This document shows, piece after piece, positions 25,172 through 40,281 of a DNA stretch of 45,690 bases. The number at the start of each line of letters is the position of its first letter. The first letter of the stretch is position 1. The notes beneath the pieces are model-generated. The model did no database searches. It was not told where the DNA came from and saw only the letters and a program-made list of their open reading frames with translations. Source of the DNA: Jiulongibacter sp. (GTDB lineage: Bacteria; Bacteroidota; Bacteroidia; Cytophagales; Spirosomataceae); the NCBI GenBank assembly GCA_024645245.1, contig JAHEBN010000006.1, forward strand, positions 1 to 45,690, in the 5' to 3' direction. The translations under genes and the position numbers were made by a program.

Positions 25172-26608
25172 TCAATCCCTGAGACAACGCACAGAAAAAC
25201 CACTACCCTTAATGCCGTCGCCCCTGAATACATCGCCATTGCCACTGCCCAGACCCCGAATCCAGGCATTTGTCGCATCGTACCCTTTCGAACTCCACCA
25301 GAGGCCGCTGCCGCCAATGAGGTAGAATGTTCCACTGTTGTAACGGTAGCCGCCCGGAAGCCCTGTAAAGCCACTTTCATTTGTAGCTCCTGTATTTGGA
25401 GAAAGCCAATGTGCAAGACCCGCTTCTTTCATTTTAACGCCTGCCACACTTTCTCCTCCCAAATTGGTCGTCAGCGTTGTCCACTCCACGTCTGTAGGTA
25501 CGTGCCAGCCCGTAGGGCATACATTCTTATTGCCATTTGCAGTAGTATTTATCGCATACCAGTTGTACAATGCTCCATAGGCTATAAGATTAGAAGATTC
25601 ATTAGGAGCATTGTACCAGGAATACCCAGGAGATGCATTCGTGCTAGCATTTCCCCAAAGTGTATTATCTGTTATTAGCGGAATAAGCGTACCATCATTA
25701 TAGCGGGTCGTTTTAAGATTCTCCGCCATCCAAGTTTGTGTACCTATGGTAATTATATCATATCGGTTATTGTCTATGTCTTTTACTCCCTCTAAGGCTT
25801 CAAGTTTAGTATCTAATAAATCCACATATGCCTTCGTAGCGGCATCTTGAGGATTTACTGGGTTAGTCACACCGCTGATGATACCAGCTACTTTTACATT
25901 GCCTTCTACATGTAGTTTTGTTTCTGGATTTGTTTTTCCTATTCCTACATTACCATTATCCAGGATACTCATTCTTTCTTGTAGATTATTTGGGTTAGAC
26001 GATGCGGATGTAAATAAACCAAGCCGTGCATCAACTGGATTTGTTCCTATTGTCTTAATACCTCCTGTATATCCAAAACCTGTTTTGAAGTACATCGAGG
26101 TCTTTACATCTATACCTAATGACCTGGTATTTTCTAATAATAATATTGAATCACCTGCATAGTTAACATGTAATTTCATCAAGGGCGATGCTGTCCCGAT
26201 GCCAATATTTGTCCCATTGTCAAAAACTTGAGATGAAACCAAAGCCGCTCCATTCCATTTAGAAAGATAATTAGTCGTATTCGCCCCTATCTGAGAACTG
26301 CTACCGGTTGATAACCTACTCCATACTGGCGAGCCAGGAGTTCCTGAATTATAATAATAGCCCGGTTGTACATCGCTTACAGTGACAGTGTTGTAAACCA
26401 ATAAACTTACTGCTGGTGAGGCTATGGTAGTGGCATCCGTGCTTCCGGTAAGCGATACATTGGGTATTAAGATACCCTTGCTTGCTGAATTTACTTCCAG
26501 CATAGCACTGCCGGGGTCGTTTTGATTGTTCAGCTTTATTGATTGTGCAAAGCTTGTCACGTGTAGTATTATACCCAATACTGCCGTTAAAAATAGTGGT
26601 TTCTTCAT
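25172..26608 (-). CDS. Secreted FISUMP-domain protein
   Basis: From ATG 26608 (the frame is open eight codons further, but MKKPLFLTAVLGIILHVTSFAQ is a clean signal peptide start) this gives 478 residues. The mature N-terminus reads QSIKLNNQNDPGSAMLEV, resembling the start of the other surface proteins here. A middle part has GNVGIGKTNPETKLHVEGNV-type tail-fibre repeats. The C-terminal 190 residues are a FISUMP domain: GTQTWMAENLKTTRYNDG, YGALYNWYA, NVCPTGWHVPTDVEWTTL, GYRY, GLWWSS and GSGFSVRCLRD. FISUMP proteins are surface-exposed and often carbohydrate- or adhesion-related; precise role unknown. Confidence 0.88.
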   Translation of the reverse strand: MKKPLFLTAVLGIILHVTSFAQSIKLNNQNDPGSAMLEVNSASKGILIPNVSLTGSTDATTIASPAVSLLVYNTVTVSDVQPGYYYNSGTPGSPVWSRLSTGSSSQIGANTTNYLSKWNGAALVSSQVFDNGTNIGIGTASPLMKLHVNYAGDSILLLENTRSLGIDVKTSMYFKTGFGYTGGIKTIGTNPVDARLGLFTSASSNPNNLQERMSILDNGNVGIGKTNPETKLHVEGNVKVAGIISGVTNPVNPQDAATKAYVDLLDTKLEALEGVKDIDNNRYDIITIGTQTWMAENLKTTRYNDGTLIPLITDNTLWGNASTNASPGYSWYNAPNESSNLIAYGALYNWYAINTTANGNKNVCPTGWHVPTDVEWTTLTTNLGGESVAGVKMKEAGLAHWLSPNTGATNESGFTGLPGGYRYNSGTFYLIGGSGLWWSSKGYDATNAWIRGLGSGNGDVFRGDGIKGSGFSVRCLRD

Positions 26609-27352
26609 TTTTGTTAGTTTAAGGGTTTCCAAAATAGGCCTTTTGAGAGCCTTTCTCCCTTGTTCTTTAATGCTAAATTTGGTAAAATAGCTCTTAATCA
26701 GAAATTAAAAAACTATGAAAATTAATCATTTTAGATGAACTTTTAAATAGGAAAAACATACTCTTCTTGCTGGAACTTCGTTTGAAAAGAAGATTATTGC
26801 AATCAGAAACGTGAATAAAAAAAACTCAATAATTTGATAGTCAGTCAATTATATGATTTGAGCATAATTGACCTTCTCAATCAATTTGTCTAAAAATAAG
26901 GCCTAAAGAAATCAGTTATTTTATTGAGTGGTAGGCGTTCCAGAGCTTGATTTCTGAAATCGTTTCTTATCGTTCTACTTTTTGTGGAGCTTAATCCATC
27001 TTTGTATACTTAAGGGAAAGTGCGATTTAAATTATAGCTGTTCGGCATTTTCCCGAATTAGAAGCGAGATAGGAAGGATTTGTAAATCGAATAAAATAAG
27101 ACTTTATCAATTTTTTTATTGTCAGAAAAGAAGTGAATATCCTTCCTTTTAAATTTAGTTCAATAAGATTGAAAATCCTTTTCCTATACCTATCGGGAAT
27201 AGCTTCAACATGCCCTGCGGAACATGTAGAAGATCGGAATTTAATCTTTTAAATAGAAAACCTATTTTAAGGAGAATTAGTCAATATTTTAATTGAAATT
27301 TCCAATATGAAAAATTACCTTATGAATTCTTATAGAAATATTGCATTAGGTA
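26609..27352. other. Long AT-rich intergenic region
   Basis: About 740 bp between two minus-strand surface-protein genes. No coding frame with recognisable content, no strong palindrome, no terminator and no exact -7 box for the FISUMP gene was found. A phrase GTGGTAGGCGTTCCAG near 26940 faintly resembles the GCGGGCGTTCCAG repeat of the 24-kb arrays but is too short to assign. It may contain eroded sequence, as the duplicated 3' gene end at 23.7 kb shows that this region rearranges. Confidence 0.4.
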
Positions 27353-28878: not shown

Positions 28879-29949
28879 TTAGCGAATTATGGTAATAAAA
28901 AAAGTATTGACAGCGGGATTGACATCGCCCGTAGTGGCATTGGTAAACTTAATTTCTACCGTATCATTTGCCGGAACTCTTGCATAGGCAATGACAATGC
29001 CGTCAGGCAAGGCACCTGAAGGCGAAACAGTAACCGTACTACCTAAATATGCTTTAGCGACTGGAATAGTCAAAGTTGTAGATTTCACAGCATTTATGGT
29101 GGGAAGGTTAATCGTATAGCTCGTTTTAATGATTTCAGTCAAATACGACCCATTTCCTCCGATCTGTACATTACCCACCACTGCCAAATTTTGAGAAACA
29201 TTAGCGTCACCGCCTAAATTTAAAGTGCCATTAACGGATAGGTTTTGACTTAAGGTCGTATTGCCGCCTACCTCCATGGTAGAGCTGACTCTTGCGGTGC
29301 CGCTTACATCTAGTTTTCTTTGAGGGTCTGTTATTCCGACACCAAAGTTTCCAGTGGGCAATAAGGTGAGTTTCGTGCTGCCATTGCTTTGGAAAAACAT
29401 CGGGCTGCTTAATTGGTTGTTTAGCACCATACTTTTGTCTGTACCACCTTCAATTAAAAAACCTTTAAAAGGAAATGTATCAGTGGAGTTAATCCTGAGC
29501 TTACTAATATCAACCTGATTTGAGCCTTTTACAATTAGAAAGGGAGTCTGTCCATTTGATTCTTTTATAAAAAAAGCATCATCATAAATATAATTATCTA
29601 CTAAAATGAGGTCTTGGTAATTATCGCCGAAAGACCATCTTTGGGTATTTCCATGTTTAAAAACGAGCCCATTAAAGCTTGTACTACCATTAGAGGGATT
29701 ATGAGAAGGGTTTCCTGATAGTTCTATCTGAGCGGAACCATCTCGATAATTATCCAATTCCTCAATCGATTTTCCTTCTATTTTAAAACGGGCGTTTCCG
29801 ATTTTGGACAATTGTTCCATTTGTGAAAAACCACCTTTCGCATTAATCAATGCTTCAGTATTCAGAGGATTAATTTCAACAGATTGAGCATTAATTCTGA
29901 TACTTGCTAAAAAAAGAAAGGGTATTATAAGCGTAACGTTATTCTTCAT
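28879..29949 (-). CDS. Secreted tail-fibre-like surface protein
   Basis: This 356-residue protein has a signal peptide (MKNNVTLIIPFLFLASIRINAQ) and mature start QSVEINPLNTEALINAKGG. Features are a NFGVGITDPQRKLDVSGTARV unit (about 209-229) followed by short near-repeats (GGNTTLSQNLSVNGTLNLGG, then DANVSQNLAVVGNVQIGG) like those of collagen-free fibre shafts, and a C-terminal beta domain ending NTFFITIIR. It is the third gene of an operon after a tail-fibre-like gene and a LytTR regulator, starting 4 bp after the LytTR stop. Role as an extracellular fibre is inferred from composition. Confidence 0.78.
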   Translation of the reverse strand: MKNNVTLIIPFLFLASIRINAQSVEINPLNTEALINAKGGFSQMEQLSKIGNARFKIEGKSIEELDNYRDGSAQIELSGNPSHNPSNGSTSFNGLVFKHGNTQRWSFGDNYQDLILVDNYIYDDAFFIKESNGQTPFLIVKGSNQVDISKLRINSTDTFPFKGFLIEGGTDKSMVLNNQLSSPMFFQSNGSTKLTLLPTGNFGVGITDPQRKLDVSGTARVSSTMEVGGNTTLSQNLSVNGTLNLGGDANVSQNLAVVGNVQIGGNGSYLTEIIKTSYTINLPTINAVKSTTLTIPVAKAYLGSTVTVSPSGALPDGIVIAYARVPANDTVEIKFTNATTGDVNPAVNTFFITIIR

Positions 29950-29953
29950 TTTC

Positions 29954-30319
29954 TTAAAAAAAAATTATTGCCTGTTCCAGGTTGTCCCTTTTCCTTCTTG
30001 ATACCGGACAACTCCAATTGTTTTTCAATGCTGCACGTCCCTTATCGAAACTTTGCAGGTAGTTGACATTAATAATGTGCGAGCGGTGTACCCGTACTAT
30101 ATGCTGTACCCCCAAAAGCCGCTCTTGAAGTTTCTGAATATTGGTACTTACTATTATCTTTTTTCCATCACTGAGATAGATATACGAATAACTGATATCA
30201 GCTGAAATCATCACAATTTCTGCTGGCTTAATGTAGGTTCTACTGCCTACATGTATTTGTGTAAATGCCCTGCTCCACATCTTGGGATTTGGTTCTAAAA
30301 TCCTGTTTCTTGTTTTCAT
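29954..30319 (-). CDS. Stand-alone LytTR-type DNA-binding regulator
   Basis: This 121-residue protein is essentially one LytTR domain. YIKPAEIVMISADISYSYIYLSDGKKIIVS (about 30-59), the LQERLLGVQHIVRVHRSHIINVNYLQSF stretch (about 65-92) with the conserved R-x-H-R-S-[HY]-[IL]-[IV]-N, and a short basic C-terminus are visible. It has no receiver or membrane part, so it may respond to protein partners or simply to its level. The gene sits between two secreted fibre genes with gaps of 5 and 4 bp, so all three are co-transcribed. A regulator made together with surface fibres suggests feedback on this locus; targets unknown. Confidence 0.9.
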   Translation of the reverse strand: MKTRNRILEPNPKMWSRAFTQIHVGSRTYIKPAEIVMISADISYSYIYLSDGKKIIVSTNIQKLQERLLGVQHIVRVHRSHIINVNYLQSFDKGRAALKNNWSCPVSRRKRDNLEQAIIFF

Positions 30320-31846: not shown

Positions 31847-31854
31847 CAAAGCTA
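31847..31854 (-). promoter_or_regulatory. -7 box of the LytTR-containing fibre operon
   Basis: TAGCTTTG on the minus strand (plus-strand CAAAGCTA) matches TANNTTTG exactly, 16 bp before the start codon at 31830. The operator centre lies 31.5 bp upstream of its first base. Confidence 0.6.
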
Positions 31855-31877
31855 AGTTGGATTATTCAGGGTCGGTA

Positions 31878-31893
31878 CTACTAATGTTAGTAG
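31878..31893. promoter_or_regulatory. Inverted-repeat operator, fibre operon promoter
   Basis: CTACTAATGTTAGTAG: perfect 7-bp arms CTACTAA/TTAGTAG with a 2-bp spacer, centred at 31885.5. The identical 16-mer, with the same flanks (TA before, GCG after), occurs at 33476-33491. The position relative to the -7 box suggests an activator site near -42. Confidence 0.8.
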
Positions 31894-31913
31894 GCGTCAG
31901 ATTTAATAAAGGG

Positions 31914-33431
31914 CTATTTTCCTATTCCGGAATTTATTGAAGCTTTCAAAACCTCAACATCTTTTTGAATAGAACGGATAAGAGCTTTTAAATCATCATT
32001 TTCGGCTTTCAACTCTTTGATTGCCTGAATACTCATGATATTAAGCTTGGAATAATTTACCGCCTTAAAACCCTTCTCATCCGTTTTGACCAGCTCAGGG
32101 AAAATTTGCTCCACTTCTTGAGCTATAAAACCATAAGACTGCTCATTGCCAAATCCTTTATCCGGAAATTCCTCCGTTTTCCAATCAAAATTTACGGGGT
32201 TAAGTTTTATTAAATCATCCAGTAAGGGATTGAAAGACCTTATATTTTTTTTGTAGCGGCTGTCGGAAACACAGGTACCTGCCAAAATTGTTCCATTTCC
32301 ATCGCTTAAGCAACCATCCGTACTTGACATTCCAATTCTAAGATTCCCCAGTTGATCCAGACGCATTTTTGTAGTATTTGTACCTAATCTAAAATCAAAT
32401 GTATTGGTCTCAGTTAACCTGATGGAACCGATGAACTGATCGGGGTATTCAGTACTGCTGGCTTTCAGAAACTGAATACCGGCTTTTTTATCTGCTGGAA
32501 CAGCAATCGAAACAAATGCATCATCATCGTTCTCTATTCTGACTAAATGCGAAAAATTAGAAGAAGAAGATCCTGATTCTCCATCAGATATATGCAATTT
32601 TTTTGATGGCGAATTGGTACCAATACCCATATTTCCGTTTTTCAGAATTGTTAAAGCCGTAGATCTGTTTATGTCGGACTGCCCATTTCCAATTAAAAAT
32701 AGAGGATCTGTAGCCACCCAGGTTGTATTTGATCCGGTAGGTACGCTATTAAAGGCACCTAAAACTGTATTGGAGTAGCCATTTAGCTTTAATCCCCAAC
32801 CCATTCCATATAAATATTTCCCTGCAGATTGACTATTTCCCTCCCCAATAAGAATAGTATTACTTGTGCCGTCTGTAATGTTATTATTAAATCCTCCCTG
32901 TGCAGAGTTGCTTCCAATTTCTCGCCAATTACCTGCAGTAGGTTGCCATGAAACGTTGCCAATAGCATCTGAAGTCAGTACTTTTCCTAAGGCAGCATTA
33001 TTTGGGTAATTTAATTTTTGAATGGTTACAAAATCATCGGCTTTATTAATTTGAAATGGGATAGTTCCGAAGCCTATATTATTTACAATTTGAAAAGCGT
33101 TGGTATTGACAGGAATTGGGAATGTACCTGCCTCTCGAAAATCTCGGATTGTCCATCTGGGTACGCTAAGATTAGCAAATTCTATGGATTGGGTAGATCC
33201 TTGTATGTCAGTAAAACCACTGAGATAATAGGACTCCCCTGATATTTTCAGTTTGGCGTTTCCCGGAACGCTGATTACCTGGTCGGCTATGGCTTCAATT
33301 GAAACTACATTATTTATTGACATTTTTGCACTAATAATATCACTATTTCCATTATTGATTGGATTCAATGTGATGCTCTGAGCCACAGTCATTTCTGAAA
33401 AAATAAAGCTTAGAAAAAATATTTTTTTCAT
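31914..33431 (-). CDS. Secreted fibre protein with C-terminal peptidase S74 (intramolecular chaperone)
   Basis: This 505-residue protein has a signal peptide (MKKIFFLSFIFSEMTVAQ) and mature start QSITLNPINNGNSDI. The middle shares DGTSNTILIGEGN, MGWGLKLNGYSNTVLGAFN and ATDPLFLIGNG with the paralogue at 30325-31830, then GNMGIGTNSPSKKLHISDGE. From about residue 389 comes an S74 domain: SDSRYKKNI with the Ser/Lys dyad, LNPVNFDWK, YGFIAQEVEQIFPELV and a final coiled coil. In phage tailspikes this domain guides trimerisation and cleaves itself off. The gene has its own promoter with the shared operator. No phage genes are nearby, so a host surface spike is the likely product. Confidence 0.9.
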   Translation of the reverse strand: MKKIFFLSFIFSEMTVAQSITLNPINNGNSDIISAKMSINNVVSIEAIADQVISVPGNAKLKISGESYYLSGFTDIQGSTQSIEFANLSVPRWTIRDFREAGTFPIPVNTNAFQIVNNIGFGTIPFQINKADDFVTIQKLNYPNNAALGKVLTSDAIGNVSWQPTAGNWREIGSNSAQGGFNNNITDGTSNTILIGEGNSQSAGKYLYGMGWGLKLNGYSNTVLGAFNSVPTGSNTTWVATDPLFLIGNGQSDINRSTALTILKNGNMGIGTNSPSKKLHISDGESGSSSSNFSHLVRIENDDDAFVSIAVPADKKAGIQFLKASSTEYPDQFIGSIRLTETNTFDFRLGTNTTKMRLDQLGNLRIGMSSTDGCLSDGNGTILAGTCVSDSRYKKNIRSFNPLLDDLIKLNPVNFDWKTEEFPDKGFGNEQSYGFIAQEVEQIFPELVKTDEKGFKAVNYSKLNIMSIQAIKELKAENDDLKALIRSIQKDVEVLKASINSGIGK

Positions 33432-33444
33432 CTGTTTTTTTCAC

Positions 33445-33452
33445 CAAACATA
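33445..33452 (-). promoter_or_regulatory. -7 box of the S74 spike gene
   Basis: TATGTTTG on the minus strand (plus-strand CAAACATA) matches TANNTTTG exactly, 13 bp before the start codon at 33431. The operator centre is 31.5 bp upstream of its first base. Confidence 0.6.
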
Positions 33453-33475
33453 CGAAAATTAAATCCAAAAGTATA

Positions 33476-33491
33476 CTACTAATGTTAGTAG
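33476..33491. promoter_or_regulatory. Inverted-repeat operator, S74 spike promoter
   Basis: CTACTAATGTTAGTAG, identical to the copy at 31878-31893, centred at 33483.5, 52 bp upstream of the S74 gene start and within the gap after the pseudouridine synthase gene. Confidence 0.8.
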
Positions 33492-33520
33492 GCGATCAAT
33501 AAAAAATATGTTATATTATT

Positions 33521-34201
33521 TTAATTTAAAACCTCAGACTTATTCGTCTCCCGCCATGCTCCTGGTTCCAAATTATTCAATTTCAAACCTCCAATTCTAA
33601 CTCTTTTGAGGATTAATATCTCATAGCTTAATTTATAACACATTCGCCTTATTTGCCTATTTAATCCCTGTATTAAAGTAATTTTGAAATGAAAATCATC
33701 GAGTTTTATCACCAAAGCGGGCAATGTTTTTTCGCCCATGATTTCTACTCCGTTTTTCATTGATTCCAGAAATTCATCGTTAATTGGTTTATCTACTTTT
33801 ATCAGATATTCTTTTTCGGTATTATATTCTTTACGCAGAATTTTGTCATAAAGCCTGCCGTCATCGGTTAACAGTATAAGTCCTTCAGAGTCTTTATCAA
33901 GTCTGCCAACAGGATAAATTCCTTCGAAGGGTAGTAAAGTCGATAGGTTATTATCTATTTCCTTATTTAGTGTAGTTTCGATTCCTCTTGGTTTATATAA
34001 AGCAATATATTTGAACTTTTTTGGTTTTTGTAAAACGATATTTTCATAGACAATTTCATCTTCTGGCAACAAGGTTGGATTTGCAGATGTATAAACTCCA
34101 TTAACGCAAATTTTCTTATCACATAGAAGCTTAAGGGCATCTTTATTAGAAATCCCCAGTTTTTTTACTAAAAAATAGTGAAGTTTATTTCGAAAGCTCA
34201 A
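33521..34201 (-). CDS. rRNA pseudouridine synthase, RsuA/RluF-like
   Basis: This 226-residue protein has an N-terminal S4 RNA-binding domain (about 1-55, LGISNKDALKLLCDKKICVNG) and an RsuA-type catalytic domain. The latter has the KPRGIETT segment (about 69), the catalytic Asp in PVGRLDKDSEGLILLTDDG (about 96-114) and GLNRQIRRMCYKLSYEILILKRVRIGGL near the end, which is most like RluF. It would convert a uridine of 23S rRNA to pseudouridine. The target site is inferred from resemblance. Housekeeping gene, unrelated to the surface genes on either side. Confidence 0.92.
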   Translation of the reverse strand: MSFRNKLHYFLVKKLGISNKDALKLLCDKKICVNGVYTSANPTLLPEDEIVYENIVLQKPKKFKYIALYKPRGIETTLNKEIDNNLSTLLPFEGIYPVGRLDKDSEGLILLTDDGRLYDKILRKEYNTEKEYLIKVDKPINDEFLESMKNGVEIMGEKTLPALVIKLDDFHFKITLIQGLNRQIRRMCYKLSYEILILKRVRIGGLKLNNLEPGAWRETNKSEVLN

Positions 34202-34305
34202 TTTGGATTTCCTAAATTATGACATGCAGACTTAAAAATTATTTGAGGTTAATAGCGAGACAAAAGTTGTCAAGCTCTGATTAAAAACTTTCCAAAAACT
34301 ATTCA

Positions 34306-34725
34306 TTACCAGCTTCTTGTCTTTATGGTTTTAATAAAAAAGAAAATCAGATATCCAATTGGGCCAAACATGAATGTGAATGGCAAAGGAATACTGTACA
34401 GCAATCTCGAAAGACCAATCTCCTGCCCTTTACGTACAATATATGCTCCTACAAAAAGATCGAATGCCAGGTAATGAATCCATCCCGCCGCCACAGCGAT
34501 ATCGTCTTGAAAAAGGGACTTTACATTTTCAAGAGTACTAAAGCTATCCACATTGAAATTACCGATTCCGCTTAAAATCAGAACAGTGTAAATTACTGCA
34601 AGAACCAAAATTACTCCTCCAAGAACTACGCTTTGCGTTTTTCTCCAATTAGGAGCTAATAATAATAATATCCAACCAGTAAGAACAAAGGTATTGGCAA
34701 AAGTAAAAATGGTAGATGGAATCAT
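34306..34725 (-). CDS. ABA4-like (DUF4281) membrane protein
   Basis: This 139-residue protein has four predicted transmembrane helices and the ABA4-like signatures FANTFVLTGWILLLLAP (about 9-25), AVAAGWIHYLAFDLFVGAYIVRKGQEIG (about 77-104) and a PFTFMFGPIGYLIFFFIK end (about 115-132). The plant homologue ABA4 takes part in neoxanthin synthesis; the bacterial role is not established. It follows the DUF2141 gene by 3 bp, so the two are co-transcribed. Confidence 0.85.
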   Translation of the reverse strand: MIPSTIFTFANTFVLTGWILLLLAPNWRKTQSVVLGGVILVLAVIYTVLILSGIGNFNVDSFSTLENVKSLFQDDIAVAAGWIHYLAFDLFVGAYIVRKGQEIGLSRLLYSIPLPFTFMFGPIGYLIFFFIKTIKTRSW

Positions 34726-34728
34726 GAT

Positions 34729-35175
34729 TTAATAAAGTAACTTAATGGTTGTTTTAGTATTATTCTGATCAAAGTAAATCATACAATCGTTAAATTTTGG
34801 TGCTGAAAATTTGGGCTTAAAATTCTGTGAAAAGCCATAAGGTTCGCTGGGTGCACCAAAAATATTTTTATCCAGCTTTCCATTATTATTAACATCCTGA
34901 TATATCGCTATTACATATTCACCATAGGACAAATCGTTCAACGATAACTTGAAAATTCCAACTTTTGCTGGTATAATTTCTTTAGACATAAATATACCTT
35001 TATCTTCTAAGAAGTCAGAACTGTTTTTATAAACCGCCACCCTGATTGCCCGATTAGTAACTTTAATGTTAGGAATGGTAATTTCAAGAGTACTTTGGAT
35101 CTGAAAAAGAAGGAAAATAATTAAAATCAAGCTTTCGAAGTTTTTGATGTCAAATATAACATGGATTAAATACAA
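34729..35175 (-). CDS. DUF2141 secreted protein
   Basis: This 148-residue protein has a hydrophobic N-terminus (about 13-27) and a DUF2141 domain: IRVAVYKNSSDFLEDKG (about 44-60) and the diagnostic YGEYVIAIYQDVNNNGKLD followed by NIFGAPSEPYGFSQN (about 86-119). The D-x-N-x-N-G-K-L-D stretch resembles a calcium-binding loop. It lies 5 bp after the frameshifted gene and 3 bp before the ABA4-like gene, in one operon. Function unknown; the family is common in Bacteroidota and Proteobacteria. Confidence 0.82.
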   Translation of the reverse strand: MYLIHVIFDIKNFESLILIIFLLFQIQSTLEITIPNIKVTNRAIRVAVYKNSSDFLEDKGIFMSKEIIPAKVGIFKLSLNDLSYGEYVIAIYQDVNNNGKLDKNIFGAPSEPYGFSQNFKPKFSAPKFNDCMIYFDQNNTKTTIKLLY

Positions 35176-35180
35176 TTGTT

Positions 35181-35830
35181 TTATTGATAGGGTGATTGGC
35201 GTAAATCGTAAAGTACAAAGTGAAAATAACTTTTTCTTCTTCTGTCAAGTTCTGAAAAACCTGCCACTATACGCGATACATCCACAAATTTAATGCTTGC
35301 TTTCGAAATTGGCCCAATAAAAATCTCACCAGTGGTGACCGTTTGATCCCAGGATCCATTACCAACCGGGGTAATCATTAATAACATACTATCCCTGTGA
35401 TAACTATGACTTGTGATACCCAATTCATACCAATTATTTTCAGTATTCCAGTCTATGGTAAAATTACCGCTACCTGATCTAATAGTGCCCAAACTATCCA
35501 GGCTACCCCATGCCAGCATTCTTGGACCTGTACTAATGGGCAACCATTTATTAATGGGAATTTTAACATCATTTATAGTCAAAGTTCTTTGCCTCATGTA
35601 ACCATAAAATTGATGCTGTTGATTATTATAAATGAGCATTCCTGGTACGGCATCATTTCCTATTAAATTATATTATTCATAGCCTCATTATTTAGGCCAG
35701 TAAGGAGCAAAAGTTTGGTGGCTGATGATAAATTAATAGATGCCTTATTGGTAGGATCAATCAAAACAGATTGAGCAAATGCAGTCATTTTAGATAAAAA
35801 CAAAATCGCAAGAATACTGATCTTTTCCAT
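35181..35830 (-). pseudogene. Frameshifted secreted protein of the tail-fibre-like group
   Basis: An N-terminal piece starts at ATG 35830 and encodes 55 residues: signal peptide (MEKISILAILFLSKMTAFAQ), mature start QSVLIDPTNKASINLSSATK and TGLNNEAMNN, ending in a stop at 35663-35665. A +1 shift near 35670 rejoins YNLIGNDAVPGMLIYNNQQH, which continues to the stop at 35181 as a frame of 152 residues from ATG 35639. Joined, the gene would encode about 215 residues. The second half has a beta-rich domain (NDVKIPINKWLPIST, GSGNFTIDWNTENNWYELG) without known family. Either a recently broken gene or a sequencing error; no slippery homopolymer is present. Confidence 0.7.
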
Positions 35831-35938
35831 AGTTATTACTCATTATAATTCAATAATAATAAGTGAATTAGATTAAAAAAAGCTAAAATTAAAAGGAAAC
35901 CTGAGGAGTTTTATTTTATGGAAATTAATAAGGCATTT

Positions 35939-36574
35939 TCAATGAACGAGTCCATTAAGCAAGGCCATTCTGATTGCCTCATTAGCCGAATTCACATGTA
36001 ATTTTTTGTAGATGTTTTTCAAGTGAAAGTTCACCGTAGGAAAACTTATATTTAATTCAGCAGCTATAAGCTTGTAGCTAAGCCCTTTTACCAACAAATC
36101 GAGCACTTTTTTTTCAGAGGCAGTAAGTTCAACAAATTCCTTTACACCCGAATTTTGATTTTGAAACATGCTAAGTACTTTTCTTGCTATACTCGGACTC
36201 ATGGCAGACCCTCCCTGATAGGTATCGATAATAGCATCAATGTATTTTTCCGGAGAAGAGGCTTTCAAAATATAACCACTGGCACCGGCACAGATAGCGG
36301 CAAATATCTTTTCATTATCTTCAAACACGGTCTGCATGCATATCTGAATATGCGGATACTTATCTTTTACTAACAAAGCAGCTTCAATTCCGCTGATTCC
36401 GGGCATTTGGATATCGAGCAAAATAACATCCGGTTTTTCTTTTCGGGAATTCTCCAGAATATCAACCGCTTTTTCGTGAGAACCGCTTAATACCATATCT
36501 GATGTTGAGCAAATGGTTTCTTCCATAAGCTCCCGTATCTCCGCCACATCTTCGTATAAACTTACTCGTATCAT
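35939..36574 (-). CDS. NarL/FixJ-family response regulator
   Basis: This 211-residue protein has a receiver domain with acidic ED (8-9), phosphoacceptor Asp54 in VILLDIQMPGISG and Lys in GYILKASSPEKY (about 104). A LuxR-type helix-turn-helix follows at about 145-205 (LTASEKKVLDLLVKGLSYKLIAAELNISFPTVNFHLKNIYKKL). It is encoded 74 bp downstream of the 1210-residue kinase with its own promoter: a variant CTATTAATACTAGTAG operator lies 31.5 bp upstream of a -7-like box. LuxR-type domains bind short inverted repeats, so this protein is the best candidate to bind the three CTACTAA sites, including its own. Confidence 0.95.
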   Translation of the reverse strand: MIRVSLYEDVAEIRELMEETICSTSDMVLSGSHEKAVDILENSRKEKPDVILLDIQMPGISGIEAALLVKDKYPHIQICMQTVFEDNEKIFAAICAGASGYILKASSPEKYIDAIIDTYQGGSAMSPSIARKVLSMFQNQNSGVKEFVELTASEKKVLDLLVKGLSYKLIAAELNISFPTVNFHLKNIYKKLHVNSANEAIRMALLNGLVH

Positions 36575-36600
36575 TTTATTTTACTTCATCAGTCATTCAG

Positions 36601-36608
36601 CAAATATC
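36601..36608 (-). promoter_or_regulatory. -7-like box of the response regulator gene
   Basis: GATATTTG on the minus strand (plus-strand CAAATATC) differs from TANNTTTG at one base and lies 26 bp before the start at 36574. The operator centre is 31.5 bp upstream of it. Confidence 0.45.
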
Positions 36609-36631
36609 TTAAAATTAAAATTGGTTCTAAC

Positions 36632-36647
36632 CTATTAATACTAGTAG
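36632..36647. promoter_or_regulatory. Variant inverted-repeat operator, response regulator promoter
   Basis: CTATTAATACTAGTAG differs from CTACTAATGTTAGTAG at three positions, two of them in the spacer. The context AACCTATTA...TAGTAGGTT extends the dyad with one mismatch. It is centred at 36639.5, just after the kinase stop and 65 bp upstream of the regulator start. Confidence 0.65.
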
Positions 36648-36648
36648 G

Positions 36649-39600
36649 TTAGAGACGTATTTTAATTTCGGTCCCTCTATTTTCCATTGAAATTATTTCA
36701 AACTCTGCCCCTATCTTTTCGGCTCTGTTTTTCATATTTGTCAGTCCATTTCCTTTACTGATTTTGCTATGATCAAATCCGGAACCATTGTCTTTTAAAG
36801 TCAAAAAACGGTGCCCGTTTTTCTTTTCTGCCGAGAAATGTGCTGAATCTGCATTGGAATATTTGGCAGCATTATTCATAGCTTCTTTAAATAAATAAAT
36901 TAATTGCCTTCTGTTTGCTGGTTTCAGACCTTTCGAATCAAAATTTTCTGCTATATCTGCCTTGAAATCAATATTTTTACTTTCAAATATTTCTTTGCCG
37001 AAGTCTGTAATACGCTCCAGCCAACCTTCTTCCTGATCGTTTGATGGATTTAATTCATAGACGGCATTTCTAACTTTCGAAAGTATGTTTCTAGATTTTT
37101 CGGCAATGGCCTGCAATCTGTCGGTAAGTTCGATATCTTCTTTTACTCTTCTTTTGCTCAATTCCACATACATTGTGAGGCTACTCAGCGAAGCAGCCAA
37201 ATCATCATGAAGATCACCCGAAATCTGATTTCGCAATTGCTGCTGTCGTTCTTTTTCCAGGTAATTTTGTCTGAATTTATAGCCGAGTGCCAACGAAAAC
37301 AACACTATTTCAATCATTGACCCTGTCATTAATACATATTCCTGATTCAAGGAACGTAGTATACCCAGATTTTGCAAGGCTAAAACGAATGAGGAAGTAC
37401 TCAAGAAAAAAATAGCAAATGAATAATAAAATATCAGAGGATCTCTTGCTTTAATATATACATAACAGATGTAATAGAATAAAATGGTAAAAAGTAAACT
37501 TAATATAATCGCAAAATAATTGATCTCATTCGGATGCCAAAAAGGAGTAATGCAAATTAAGGCAATTGCACTGGTCATTATAAAACCTTTTATTAAATGC
37601 CAGTACTTGAGTTTATGATTCAAATCCAGAAATTTTTCTGTAAAAAGTGTAATAAAAAGGTAAGATATATATAGAAACATTAAAAATGCATATTCATTAA
37701 ATGGGTGATTTGACCAGAAATACTGAAAGGCAAATCCATAGATGGCAAATTGAAAAAGCCCGAATGATAAAATATAAATCATATAATATAAATAGGTCTG
37801 GTCTTTTATAGTTAACCATAAAAACAAATTATAAAATGATATTAAAATGATAAATCCGATAAAAACACCCCAAATAAGTTTTCGATTACTTTGATGCTCA
37901 CTTAAGGCCGACACGTTCCATATTCTAACCGGAATTTTCAAATCACGGGATGTTCTCGCTTTGAGATATATTTCGTATTGTTGATTTTCAATAAGATCCA
38001 GCTCAAATGTAGGGTTTGGGTCTTTTATAAGGTATTTTTCAAAAGGTAATTTATCGCCGGTTTTGGAATAATATACTTCTCGATTTTTTTCAAAAATCCA
38101 AATTTCCAATTCACTTAGTCGTGTATTTTCTACCTCCAGATACCACTTTTCGTTAGTCTCGTTTCTTAAATCAAACTTTACCCAGCCAGTTCCGTTGGTA
38201 TAAAGGAAATTAGGTAATGGGGCATTTAATTGAACAAACGATTTCCTAAATTCTACTTTTTTAATTTCGGGTTTCTTAAATTTTGAATCCTTATCCAGAA
38301 ATACCTGATAATCTGTAGGAATCAGGCTTTTGAGATTTTTTTTTAAAATATTATTCTTTACCTGAACAGGAAGTTTTATATCATCAGGCATAAAATAATT
38401 TAAGCCACTTACACCGCCAAAGTATATACGCCCTTCTGAATTTTTATAAGATGCAAACGAATTATATTCATAATCCTGAAGCCCATCATTTAAATTAAAT
38501 GTGGTAAATAATTCCTTTAAAGGGTCAAACCGAACAATCCCCCGGTTGGTACTTAACCATAAAATACCTCTATTGTCGAATTCACCACAATAAACAAAAT
38601 CATTAGGCAGGCCATCTATTAGCGTGTATTTTTTAATTAAATTGTCATTTAAGTCAAAATGAAATAATCCTTCACTTGTGCCACACCATAAATTTCCTTT
38701 TGAGTCATTCTTAATGAAAATCGGAATAACATCCGGAATCATTATAGTTTTAATACCATTTTTCACCTTTACCAAGCCCTCTTCCATATTCCCGAAATAC
38801 CATTTCTGCCTATTAGGATGAAAAGTAAAAACCATCCTGGAATCAGACTCCAACCTTTCAGTGCTTAATTTCTTTTTAATCAAATCGTAAATCAAAATTC
38901 CTTCTTCTGTACTCAAATAAAGTTTTTTATCGTACTCTTCCATACTTCTCACAAAAACTCCGGTAATACGCCTTTTGAAATTAATAATTGGGATATTTAC
39001 AGGTTGTTCGTTTATAAACTCAGTAATACCTGCATCCGAAGCAATAAATATTTGATTGGTACTGGTTTTGATTAGCTGACTAATGTGATCAGAAACCAGA
39101 TCAGAATTATCTTTGATAAAGTACTTTTTGACAGAAAAATCTTGCTTATTCAAAATCCAAATACCACTATTCAAGGTACCCAGCCATAGGTTTTGGCCAT
39201 CTTCCAAAATGGATCTTATGCTGTAATTTCGAAGAGCTTCAGGAAAATCGGGTGGAAAATCTAATGCATATTTTGAAAAATTTCCCGCTAATCTTTCAAT
39301 TCTGTCAATACCATAAGGATCGCTATTTACCCAGATTACTTCGTTTTGATCTACATATACAAAAGAGACAAAATTATCAGAAAGCCCGGGTTTTGATTCG
39401 GTATTTCTTGAAATTTGTTCAAAAGTCTTTGTCTTCGTATCAAAAATAAGCAAGCCCTTATCCTGAGTACCAATCCAGATTTTACCGTTACTATCAATTC
39501 CAAAATCCTGAATAAGTCCTATTTTTAAAGTATTGAAATTCTCAAAGCGTTCGATTGAATTATTTTTAGGATCCAAAATTCTCAATCCATCTTCAGTGCC

Positions 39601-40281
39601 CAGATAAAGCCGGTTATTCCACCATTTTATTTTAGAAATGAAAAGTGGTTTACCGGCTTTATTCACATTAGATTGTGAAAAATAAATTTCATTTTTACCA
39701 TCTTTAGAATATACAATTCCCTTATCAGAATGCACCCAAAACTCACTCTTTGAAATAATATCCGAAGAATTAAAGGTGTTGGTATAATTGGTACTGAATT
39801 TCTCGCTATTAAAAAAAATCGAAAATTTATTTTGCACAACATCCATGCGAACAAAACCCTTTTTATCGGTCCAAAACCACAAAAAACCATCTGTAAACTC
39901 TATGGGTAAAACCTCTTCGCCATTAAAATATTGCACAAAAGAATTCTTAATATAATTATATTTATTCAGGCCCATTTCAGTACCGATCCAAACATTACCT
40001 GAACCATCTTCCACAATTCCACCTATTTTCCTTCCAGAAATGCTTTTGGAATTTCCGGGTTCTGGCTTGAATACGGTAATCTTTTTCCCGTCAAACATAT
40101 TCAAACCATCCTGGCTACCAAACCACATCAATCCTCTGCTATCACGTAAAATTGAATATACCGAGCCCTGAGATAAGCCTTCAGCCAGTCCAATGTGAGT
40201 AACCCGATAAGGCAAATTCTGAGCATTGCTTTTTAAACTGACAAATACAAAAACCGTAACTAAGAATAAAAATCTGATCAT
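36649..40281 (-). CDS. Two-component sensor kinase with beta-propeller, 7TMR-DISM and HisKA_3/HATPase domains
   Basis: This 1210-residue protein has a signal peptide (about 1-20), then a periplasmic Reg_prop beta-propeller (about 25-640) with repeated WFGSQDGLNMFD, VWIGTEMGLNKYN, LWLSTNRGIVRFDP and IYFGGVSGLNYF units. A 7TMR-DISMED2-like sensor (about 670-795, GTGWVKFDLRNETNEKWYLEVEN) and seven transmembrane helices (about 802-1002) follow. The HisKA_3 H-box is GDLHDDLAASLSSL (His 1025) and the ATPase has KEAMNNAAKYS and LKDNGSGFD. Reg_prop kinases usually have a Y_Y_Y domain and single helix here instead. It is paired with the NarL-type regulator downstream; ligand unknown. Confidence 0.93.
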   Translation of the reverse strand: MIRFLFLVTVFVFVSLKSNAQNLPYRVTHIGLAEGLSQGSVYSILRDSRGLMWFGSQDGLNMFDGKKITVFKPEPGNSKSISGRKIGGIVEDGSGNVWIGTEMGLNKYNYIKNSFVQYFNGEEVLPIEFTDGFLWFWTDKKGFVRMDVVQNKFSIFFNSEKFSTNYTNTFNSSDIISKSEFWVHSDKGIVYSKDGKNEIYFSQSNVNKAGKPLFISKIKWWNNRLYLGTEDGLRILDPKNNSIERFENFNTLKIGLIQDFGIDSNGKIWIGTQDKGLLIFDTKTKTFEQISRNTESKPGLSDNFVSFVYVDQNEVIWVNSDPYGIDRIERLAGNFSKYALDFPPDFPEALRNYSIRSILEDGQNLWLGTLNSGIWILNKQDFSVKKYFIKDNSDLVSDHISQLIKTSTNQIFIASDAGITEFINEQPVNIPIINFKRRITGVFVRSMEEYDKKLYLSTEEGILIYDLIKKKLSTERLESDSRMVFTFHPNRQKWYFGNMEEGLVKVKNGIKTIMIPDVIPIFIKNDSKGNLWCGTSEGLFHFDLNDNLIKKYTLIDGLPNDFVYCGEFDNRGILWLSTNRGIVRFDPLKELFTTFNLNDGLQDYEYNSFASYKNSEGRIYFGGVSGLNYFMPDDIKLPVQVKNNILKKNLKSLIPTDYQVFLDKDSKFKKPEIKKVEFRKSFVQLNAPLPNFLYTNGTGWVKFDLRNETNEKWYLEVENTRLSELEIWIFEKNREVYYSKTGDKLPFEKYLIKDPNPTFELDLIENQQYEIYLKARTSRDLKIPVRIWNVSALSEHQSNRKLIWGVFIGFIILISFYNLFLWLTIKDQTYLYYMIYILSFGLFQFAIYGFAFQYFWSNHPFNEYAFLMFLYISYLFITLFTEKFLDLNHKLKYWHLIKGFIMTSAIALICITPFWHPNEINYFAIILSLLFTILFYYICYVYIKARDPLIFYYSFAIFFLSTSSFVLALQNLGILRSLNQEYVLMTGSMIEIVLFSLALGYKFRQNYLEKERQQQLRNQISGDLHDDLAASLSSLTMYVELSKRRVKEDIELTDRLQAIAEKSRNILSKVRNAVYELNPSNDQEEGWLERITDFGKEIFESKNIDFKADIAENFDSKGLKPANRRQLIYLFKEAMNNAAKYSNADSAHFSAEKKNGHRFLTLKDNGSGFDHSKISKGNGLTNMKNRAEKIGAEFEIISMENRGTEIKIRL

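What the first reader, a model, noticed from the sequence alone, without database searches (positions are those of the whole stretch)
31847..36647. Three promoters share an inverted-repeat operator at identical spacing: a candidate regulon of the local NarL-type regulator
CTACTAATGTTAGTAG occurs exactly at 31878-31893 and 33476-33491 and as CTATTAATACTAGTAG at 36632-36647. Measured to the first base of the nearest -7 box on the minus strand (31854, 33452, 36608), the operator centre is 31.5 bp away in all three. That equal spacing is unlikely by chance and puts the site near -42, a typical activator position. The targets are the LytTR/fibre operon, the S74 spike gene and the NarL-type response regulator gene next to its giant kinase. 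I infer that the kinase/regulator pair activates surface-spike genes and its own regulator.
Basis: partly seen in the sequence, partly recalled or inferred. Interest (0 to 1): 0.85.

Follow-up and report, generated by a model that had tools for sequence, protein, structure and literature searches.

The report
Surface-protein regulon of a two-component switch
Three promoters next to a sensor-kinase/regulator gene pair carry the same mirror-image DNA site at the same distance from the RNA-polymerase box, and the same arrangement recurs in relatives that encode this regulator (one incomplete genome excepted), so the site is very probably the regulator's own binding site, used to switch on its own gene and a set of cell-surface protein genes.

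Summary
CTACTAA-N2-TTAGTAG is exact at 31878 and 33476; a two-mismatch copy lies at 36632. In all three the centre is 31.5 bp from the first base of the -7 box (third box GATATTTG, not TANNTTTG). No other such composite site exists in the 4.55-Mb genome. Orthologues of the NarL-type regulator (61-91% identity; Lacihabitans, Emticicia, Runella and relatives) occur in 19 of 222 family genomes. The site lies 61-136 bp upstream of the regulator in 14; 5 Runella-type genomes have a degenerate copy in register. It also precedes nearby surface-protein or LytTR genes, with exact TANNTTTG at 31.5 bp in 18 of 19. Exact composite sites occur in 12 genomes, 11 with the orthologue (P about 7e-13). Paralogous regulators have a different palindrome (TCCCYAA-N2-TTRGGGA) at the same distance, and recognition-helix residue 182 (N or H) matches half-site base 5 (T or C) in 45 of 45 cases. 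So the regulator is very likely the binder. Position -43.5 fits a NarL-type activator of its own gene, a stand-alone LytTR gene and secreted surface proteins. Binding, activation and signal are untested. An undescribed regulon of a known kind.

The parts
31878..31893 (-). operator 1, CTACTAACATTAGTAG on the transcribed (minus) strand
31847..31854 (-). -7 box TAGCTTTG of the promoter of the fibre/LytTR operon, 31.5 bp from the operator centre
33476..33491 (-). operator 2, CTACTAACATTAGTAG
33445..33452 (-). -7 box TATGTTTG of the S74 gene promoter
36632..36647 (-). operator 3, CTACTAGTATTAATAG, between kinase stop codon and regulator start; lies in a longer imperfect palindrome (36625-36654)
36601..36608 (-). 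-7-like box GATATTTG of the regulator promoter, same register (orthologues also mostly have GANNTTT here)
35939..36574 (-). NarL/FixJ-type response regulator (Response_reg + GerE); D54, T82, K104; recognition helix N182 F183 H184 L185 K186; proposed binder
36649..40281 (-). sensor histidine kinase, 1210 aa: Reg_prop propeller, 7TMR-DISMED2, 7TMR-DISM_7TM, HisKA_3 (GDLHDDLAAS), HATPase_c
31914..33431 (-). target: secreted protein with C-terminal Peptidase_S74 (tail-fibre chaperone) domain, 505 aa
30325..31830 (-). target: secreted fibre-like repeat protein, 501 aa, first gene of operon
29954..30319 (-). target: stand-alone LytTR DNA-binding protein, 121 aa, second gene of operon
28879..29949 (-). 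probable operon member: secreted protein of unknown family, 356 aa

Best explanation
The palindrome is the binding site of a dimer of the adjacent NarL/FixJ-type response regulator. Shown by sequence: a 7-2-7 inverted repeat centred at -43.5 of TANNTTTG promoters, conserved in position and register upstream of regulator orthologues and of nearby secreted surface-protein/LytTR operons in several genera. Shown by covariation: paralogous regulators with other recognition-helix residues have other palindromes at the same distance. Inferred: the 7TMR kinase senses a periplasmic or extracellular cue and phosphorylates D54; the regulator dimerises on the site next to the -33 region and recruits sigma-A RNA polymerase, raising its own expression (positive feedback) and that of surface fibre proteins and of LytTR, which may act as a second-tier regulator.
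For: Operator and spacing verified and unique to this locus in the genome. Of 19 genomes with a >=61% orthologue, 14 have the site (<=2 mismatches) 61-136 bp upstream of the regulator ATG, and 5 Runella-type genomes have the degenerate CTACTTGAATTAACAG in the same register. Among nearby non-regulator sites, not selected on the -7 box, exact TANNTTTG lies at 31.5 bp in 18 of 19 (background about 0.0008 per position). Exact composite sites occur in 12 of 222 family genomes, 11 with the orthologue, P about 7e-13; about 310 genomes of other families gave no exact hit. Paralogue operators TCCCYAA-N2-TTRGGGA at the same spacing; residue 182 is N with base T in 26 and H with base C in 19, no exceptions, with 4 joint changes on a receiver-domain tree. 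Residues 182, 183 and 186 align with NarL K188, V189 and K192. NarL prefers 7-2-7 sites and has upstream sites at -40/-49 and -38/-47 at napF and yeaR (PMC4549865). Targets are signal-peptide proteins with S74, YadA_head or T9SS-associated domains.
Against: No binding or expression data. The third site in this genome is imperfect and its -7 box is not consensus. The covariation rests on only 2 well-supported independent changes (4 on the best tree), so it is not significant by a sign test. L121 carries N182-F183 yet its LytTR promoter has CCCCTAC-type arms, so F183 alone does not specify CTACTAA. At <=2 mismatches the composite pattern is about as frequent in the family as its reversed control; the signal is in the 0-1 mismatch sites.
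Confidence: 0.82

Rival explanations
1. The regulator binds these sites but represses (bound dimer at -51 to -36 blocks access to the -33 region); loss of signal would turn on the surface genes.
For: In the regulator promoters a TTG lies at or just after the operator's end in half of the cases (7 of 14), so a bound dimer could crowd the -33 element; autorepression is common.
Against: The site leaves the -7 box and start site free, the fixed -43.5 register matches NarL upstream sites at activated promoters (PMC4549865), and target promoters mostly lack a -33 TTG (5 of 36), as expected of activator-dependent promoters. Strict spacing over several genera is typical of polymerase contact.
Confidence: 0.12
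2. The site is bound by the stand-alone LytTR protein of the operon (or another local regulator), not by the NarL-type regulator.
For: LytTR genes recur in the operator-driven operons (10 of 19 orthologue and 14 of 40 paralogue neighbourhoods).
Against: LytTR domains bind direct-repeat sites (own knowledge). Sites occur in Runella-type genomes where no LytTR gene was found within the fetched region. Half-site identity follows the NarL-type recognition helix in 45 of 45 cases and the site is most constant at the regulator's own promoter.
Confidence: 0.04
3. The palindromes act as RNA hairpins (terminators or attenuators) or are a mobile or invertible repeat rather than an operator.
For: The 36625-36654 palindrome can form a 13-bp stem, z -3.8.
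Against: The two exact sites fold little better than shuffles (z -1.4 and -1.1), lie upstream of the promoter (so would not be in the transcript from it), have no T-run, and conservation ends at the 16-20 bp palindrome plus the -7 box.
Confidence: 0.02

Closest known systems
E. coli NarL (7-2-7 sites, napF and yeaR promoters)
   Same: REC + GerE architecture, 7-2-7 inverted repeat, dimer site centred about -43 to -45 at activated promoters, same recognition-helix positions (K188, V189, K192 aligned with N182, F183, K186)
   Different: Different half-site (TACCCCT-like versus CTACTAA), Bacteroidota sigma-A promoter, 7TMR-DISM kinase instead of NarX/NarQ, targets are surface proteins
VraR / LiaR (VraSR, LiaSR)
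   Same: Best solved-structure match of the regulator profile (5hev, 1.6e-34); LiaS and NarQ-type kinase core matches
   Different: Gram-positive envelope-stress systems; kinase has no large propeller/7TM sensor; targets differ
Bacteroides hybrid two-component systems (HTCS)
   Same: Reg_prop propeller sensor kinase and local control of surface gene clusters in Bacteroidota
   Different: Here kinase and regulator are separate genes and the regulator is NarL/GerE, not an AraC-type output in one polypeptide

Membership tests
NarL/FixJ response regulators | receiver domain with conserved acidic pocket, phospho-Asp, Thr and Lys | tested here: met
   Response_reg 66.7 bits against cut-off 30.2; D9, D54, T82, K104 invariant in 19 orthologues
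NarL/FixJ response regulators | C-terminal GerE/LuxR helix-turn-helix | tested here: met
   GerE 62.9 bits against cut-off 23.5; full-length profile match to VraR and NarL structures
NarL/FixJ response regulators | binds inverted heptamers separated by 2 bp (7-2-7) | tested here: inconclusive
   CTACTAA-N2-TTAGTAG has that form and covaries with the recognition helix; binding itself not testable
NarL/FixJ response regulators | phosphorylation-dependent DNA binding | not testable with these tools
   needs protein
7TMR-DISM sensor histidine kinases | 7TMR-DISM transmembrane unit with DISMED2 extracellular domain and kinase core with H-box | tested here: met
   126.9 and 78 bits; HisKA_3 42 bits; HATPase_c 30.3 bits; H-box LHDDLA
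Bacteroidota sigma-A promoters | TANNTTTG at -12 to -5 | tested here: met
   exact in 18 of 19 nearby target promoters; regulator promoters mostly GANNTTT, exact in only 1 of 14
Bacteroides hybrid two-component systems | kinase and DNA-binding output in one polypeptide | tested here: not met
   separate ORFs 36649-40281 and 35939-36574
LytTR-bound operators | direct-repeat site next to LytTR genes in all carriers | tested here: not met
   inverted repeat; sites also where no LytTR gene was found nearby

The most novel reading that the evidence does not exclude
Spirosomataceae genomes carry several parallel copies of one module (7TMR-type kinase, NarL-type regulator, LytTR gene, surface proteins). 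In each, promoter geometry is frozen at 31.5 bp while the palindrome and the recognition helix have changed together, giving insulated surface-coat switches and a readable recognition code (residue 182 N/H with base T/C; residue 183 F or S/T with the outer bases).
Probability: 0.5. Interest if true: 0.7.

Novelty: new member of a known kind. Interest (0 to 1): 0.52.

Why it matters
It gives a concrete, testable regulon for a kind of two-component system (7TMR-DISM kinase with a NarL-type regulator) for which my few literature searches found no described operator, and it links that system to fibre-like surface proteins of unknown role. The paralogue series offers a natural set for working out DNA-recognition rules of NarL-type regulators and for predicting regulons from the recognition helix.

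Tried and rejected
A first palindrome scan required the two central bases to pair and found almost nothing; relaxed to 7-2-7. RNA hairpin/terminator reading rejected for the two exact sites. Composite pattern at <=2 mismatches judged background-level by the reversed control in most genomes, so only 0-1 mismatch sites are used for co-occurrence. The weak DUF1559 (SBP_bac_10) hits of the fibre genes rest on short stretches and are not used. E. coli sigma-70 promoter scan no better than shuffles, as expected for this phylum. Literature searches found no description of this regulon or operator. In more distant regulators (Chitinophagaceae etc.) most promoters gave no clear operator with this method. 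Structure prediction was not run: it would not decide who binds the site.

Full report
OBSERVATION. The 16-mer is exact at 31878-31893 and 33476-33491, with a two-mismatch copy (to CTACTAA-N2-TTAGTAG) at 36632-36647. On the minus strand all three read operator, 23 bases, then a -7 box, so the centre is 31.5 bp from the first base of the box; the third box is GATATTTG rather than TANNTTTG. No other copy of the pattern, and no other operator-N23-TANNTTTG composite within 2 mismatches, exists in the 4.55-Mb genome.

SURROUNDINGS. The sites flank a two-component pair: a 1210-aa kinase with a Reg_prop propeller, 7TMR-DISM extracellular and 7TM domains and a HisKA_3/HATPase core, and a 211-aa REC-GerE regulator. 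Operator 3 lies in the 74-bp gap between kinase stop and regulator start. Operator 2 precedes a secreted protein with a C-terminal S74 chaperone domain (also matched by many phage tail-fibre families). Operator 1 precedes a fibre-like secreted protein followed by a stand-alone LytTR gene and a further secreted protein.

PHYLOGENETIC FOOTPRINT. Regulator orthologues of 61-91% identity form a distinct group in 19 of 222 family genomes, with the next matches at 54% or less; named members are Lacihabitans, Emticicia, Runella and Spirosomataceae MAGs. In 14 of 19 the palindrome (<=2 mismatches) lies 61-136 bp upstream of the regulator ATG; the five Runella-type genomes have CTACTTGAATTAACAG in the same register with a -7-like box (read by eye from the printed upstream sequences). 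Nearby second sites precede secreted-protein or LytTR operons. Among 19 such sites, collected on the operator alone, exact TANNTTTG sits at the same distance in 18; the exception has TAACTTCG. Distant sites found through the composite pattern also precede signal-peptide proteins, including 1,544- and 2,250-residue T9SS-associated repeat proteins and a YadA-head protein.

CO-OCCURRENCE. Exact composite sites were found in 12 family genomes, 11 of them among the 19 with the orthologue (hypergeometric P about 7e-13; related genomes are not independent, so this overstates the evidence). The exception, G185, is 77% complete and has only 46-48% matches, so a missing contig is possible. Outside the family about 310 genomes gave no exact hit and four one-mismatch hits, no more than the reversed-pattern control.

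WHO BINDS. Paralogous regulators (46-54% identity) were examined in 40 loci. Many have TCCCYAA-N2-TTRGGGA upstream of their own gene, and several also before a nearby LytTR gene, at the same 31.5-bp distance. Recognition-helix residue 182 (NarL K188) is N where half-site base 5 is T (26 cases) and H where it is C (19 cases), with no exception; residue 183 (NarL V189) is F in all 19 CTACTAA regulators and mostly S or T in the TCCC group. Operators were picked by palindrome and -7 register, not by base 5, except seven assigned by hand (O_G021, P_L092 and the five Runella-type sites). On a tree from the receiver domain only, residue and base each change four times, together; only two changes are on well-supported branches, so this is suggestive, not significant. 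One regulator (L121) has N182-F183 with Y184 but CCCCTAC-type arms, so the code is not complete.

MECHANISM. TANNTTTG occupies -12 to -5 in Flavobacterium psychrophilum, of the same phylum (PMC9723704), so the operator is centred at -43.5 and covers -51 to -36. NarL prefers 7-2-7 sites, and its napF and yeaR sites lie at -40/-49 and -38/-47 (PMC4549865). The -33 motif was not detected in Flavobacterium johnsoniae though present in Bacteroides (PMC7366714); here target promoters rarely have TTG there (5 of 36) while regulator promoters more often do (7 of 14) and have a weaker -7 box. The most likely reading is an activator with positive feedback on the regulator and a LytTR second tier. Phosphotransfer from the kinase is inferred from adjacency and intact catalytic motifs only.

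NOVELTY. The kind (NarL-type regulator, 7-2-7 operator, autoregulation) is known. The regulon, the operator and its link to surface fibres and LytTR were not found in the literature searched, which covers only open-licence papers.

Noticed in passing
window 29954-30319; L065-L081, L243, L245, L250, L251: A stand-alone LytTR gene recurs within the operator-driven operons of both operator classes, suggesting a regulator-to-LytTR cascade.
   Followed up: partly
L071 (G097:C10:45502-65501): Tandem regulator-LytTR-surface protein modules at 0, about +4.5 and about +10 kb with paralogous regulators; no operator found for the second and third.
   Followed up: partly
L073 4155-5942 and homologues: In Runella-type, g36 and g25 genomes the kinase is about 600 aa; in the one scanned (L073) the Reg_prop propeller is absent, while regulator and operator persist.
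   Followed up: partly
window 36625-36654: The operator in the kinase-regulator gap lies in a longer palindrome that could form a 13-bp RNA stem (z -3.8); not seen in most orthologues.
   Followed up: partly
and 27 hit lists: Several target promoters of both operator classes have TACCG(CCG) directly after the palindrome; meaning unknown.
   Followed up: no
L068 and L071 target sites: G168 and G097 target operators are hybrids with one CCCCTAA arm and one TTAGTAG arm, perhaps read by two paralogues.
   Followed up: no
window 25172-26632: A FISUMP-domain (Fib_succ_major) protein with tail-fibre-like N-terminal matches lies further downstream without the operator.
   Followed up: no
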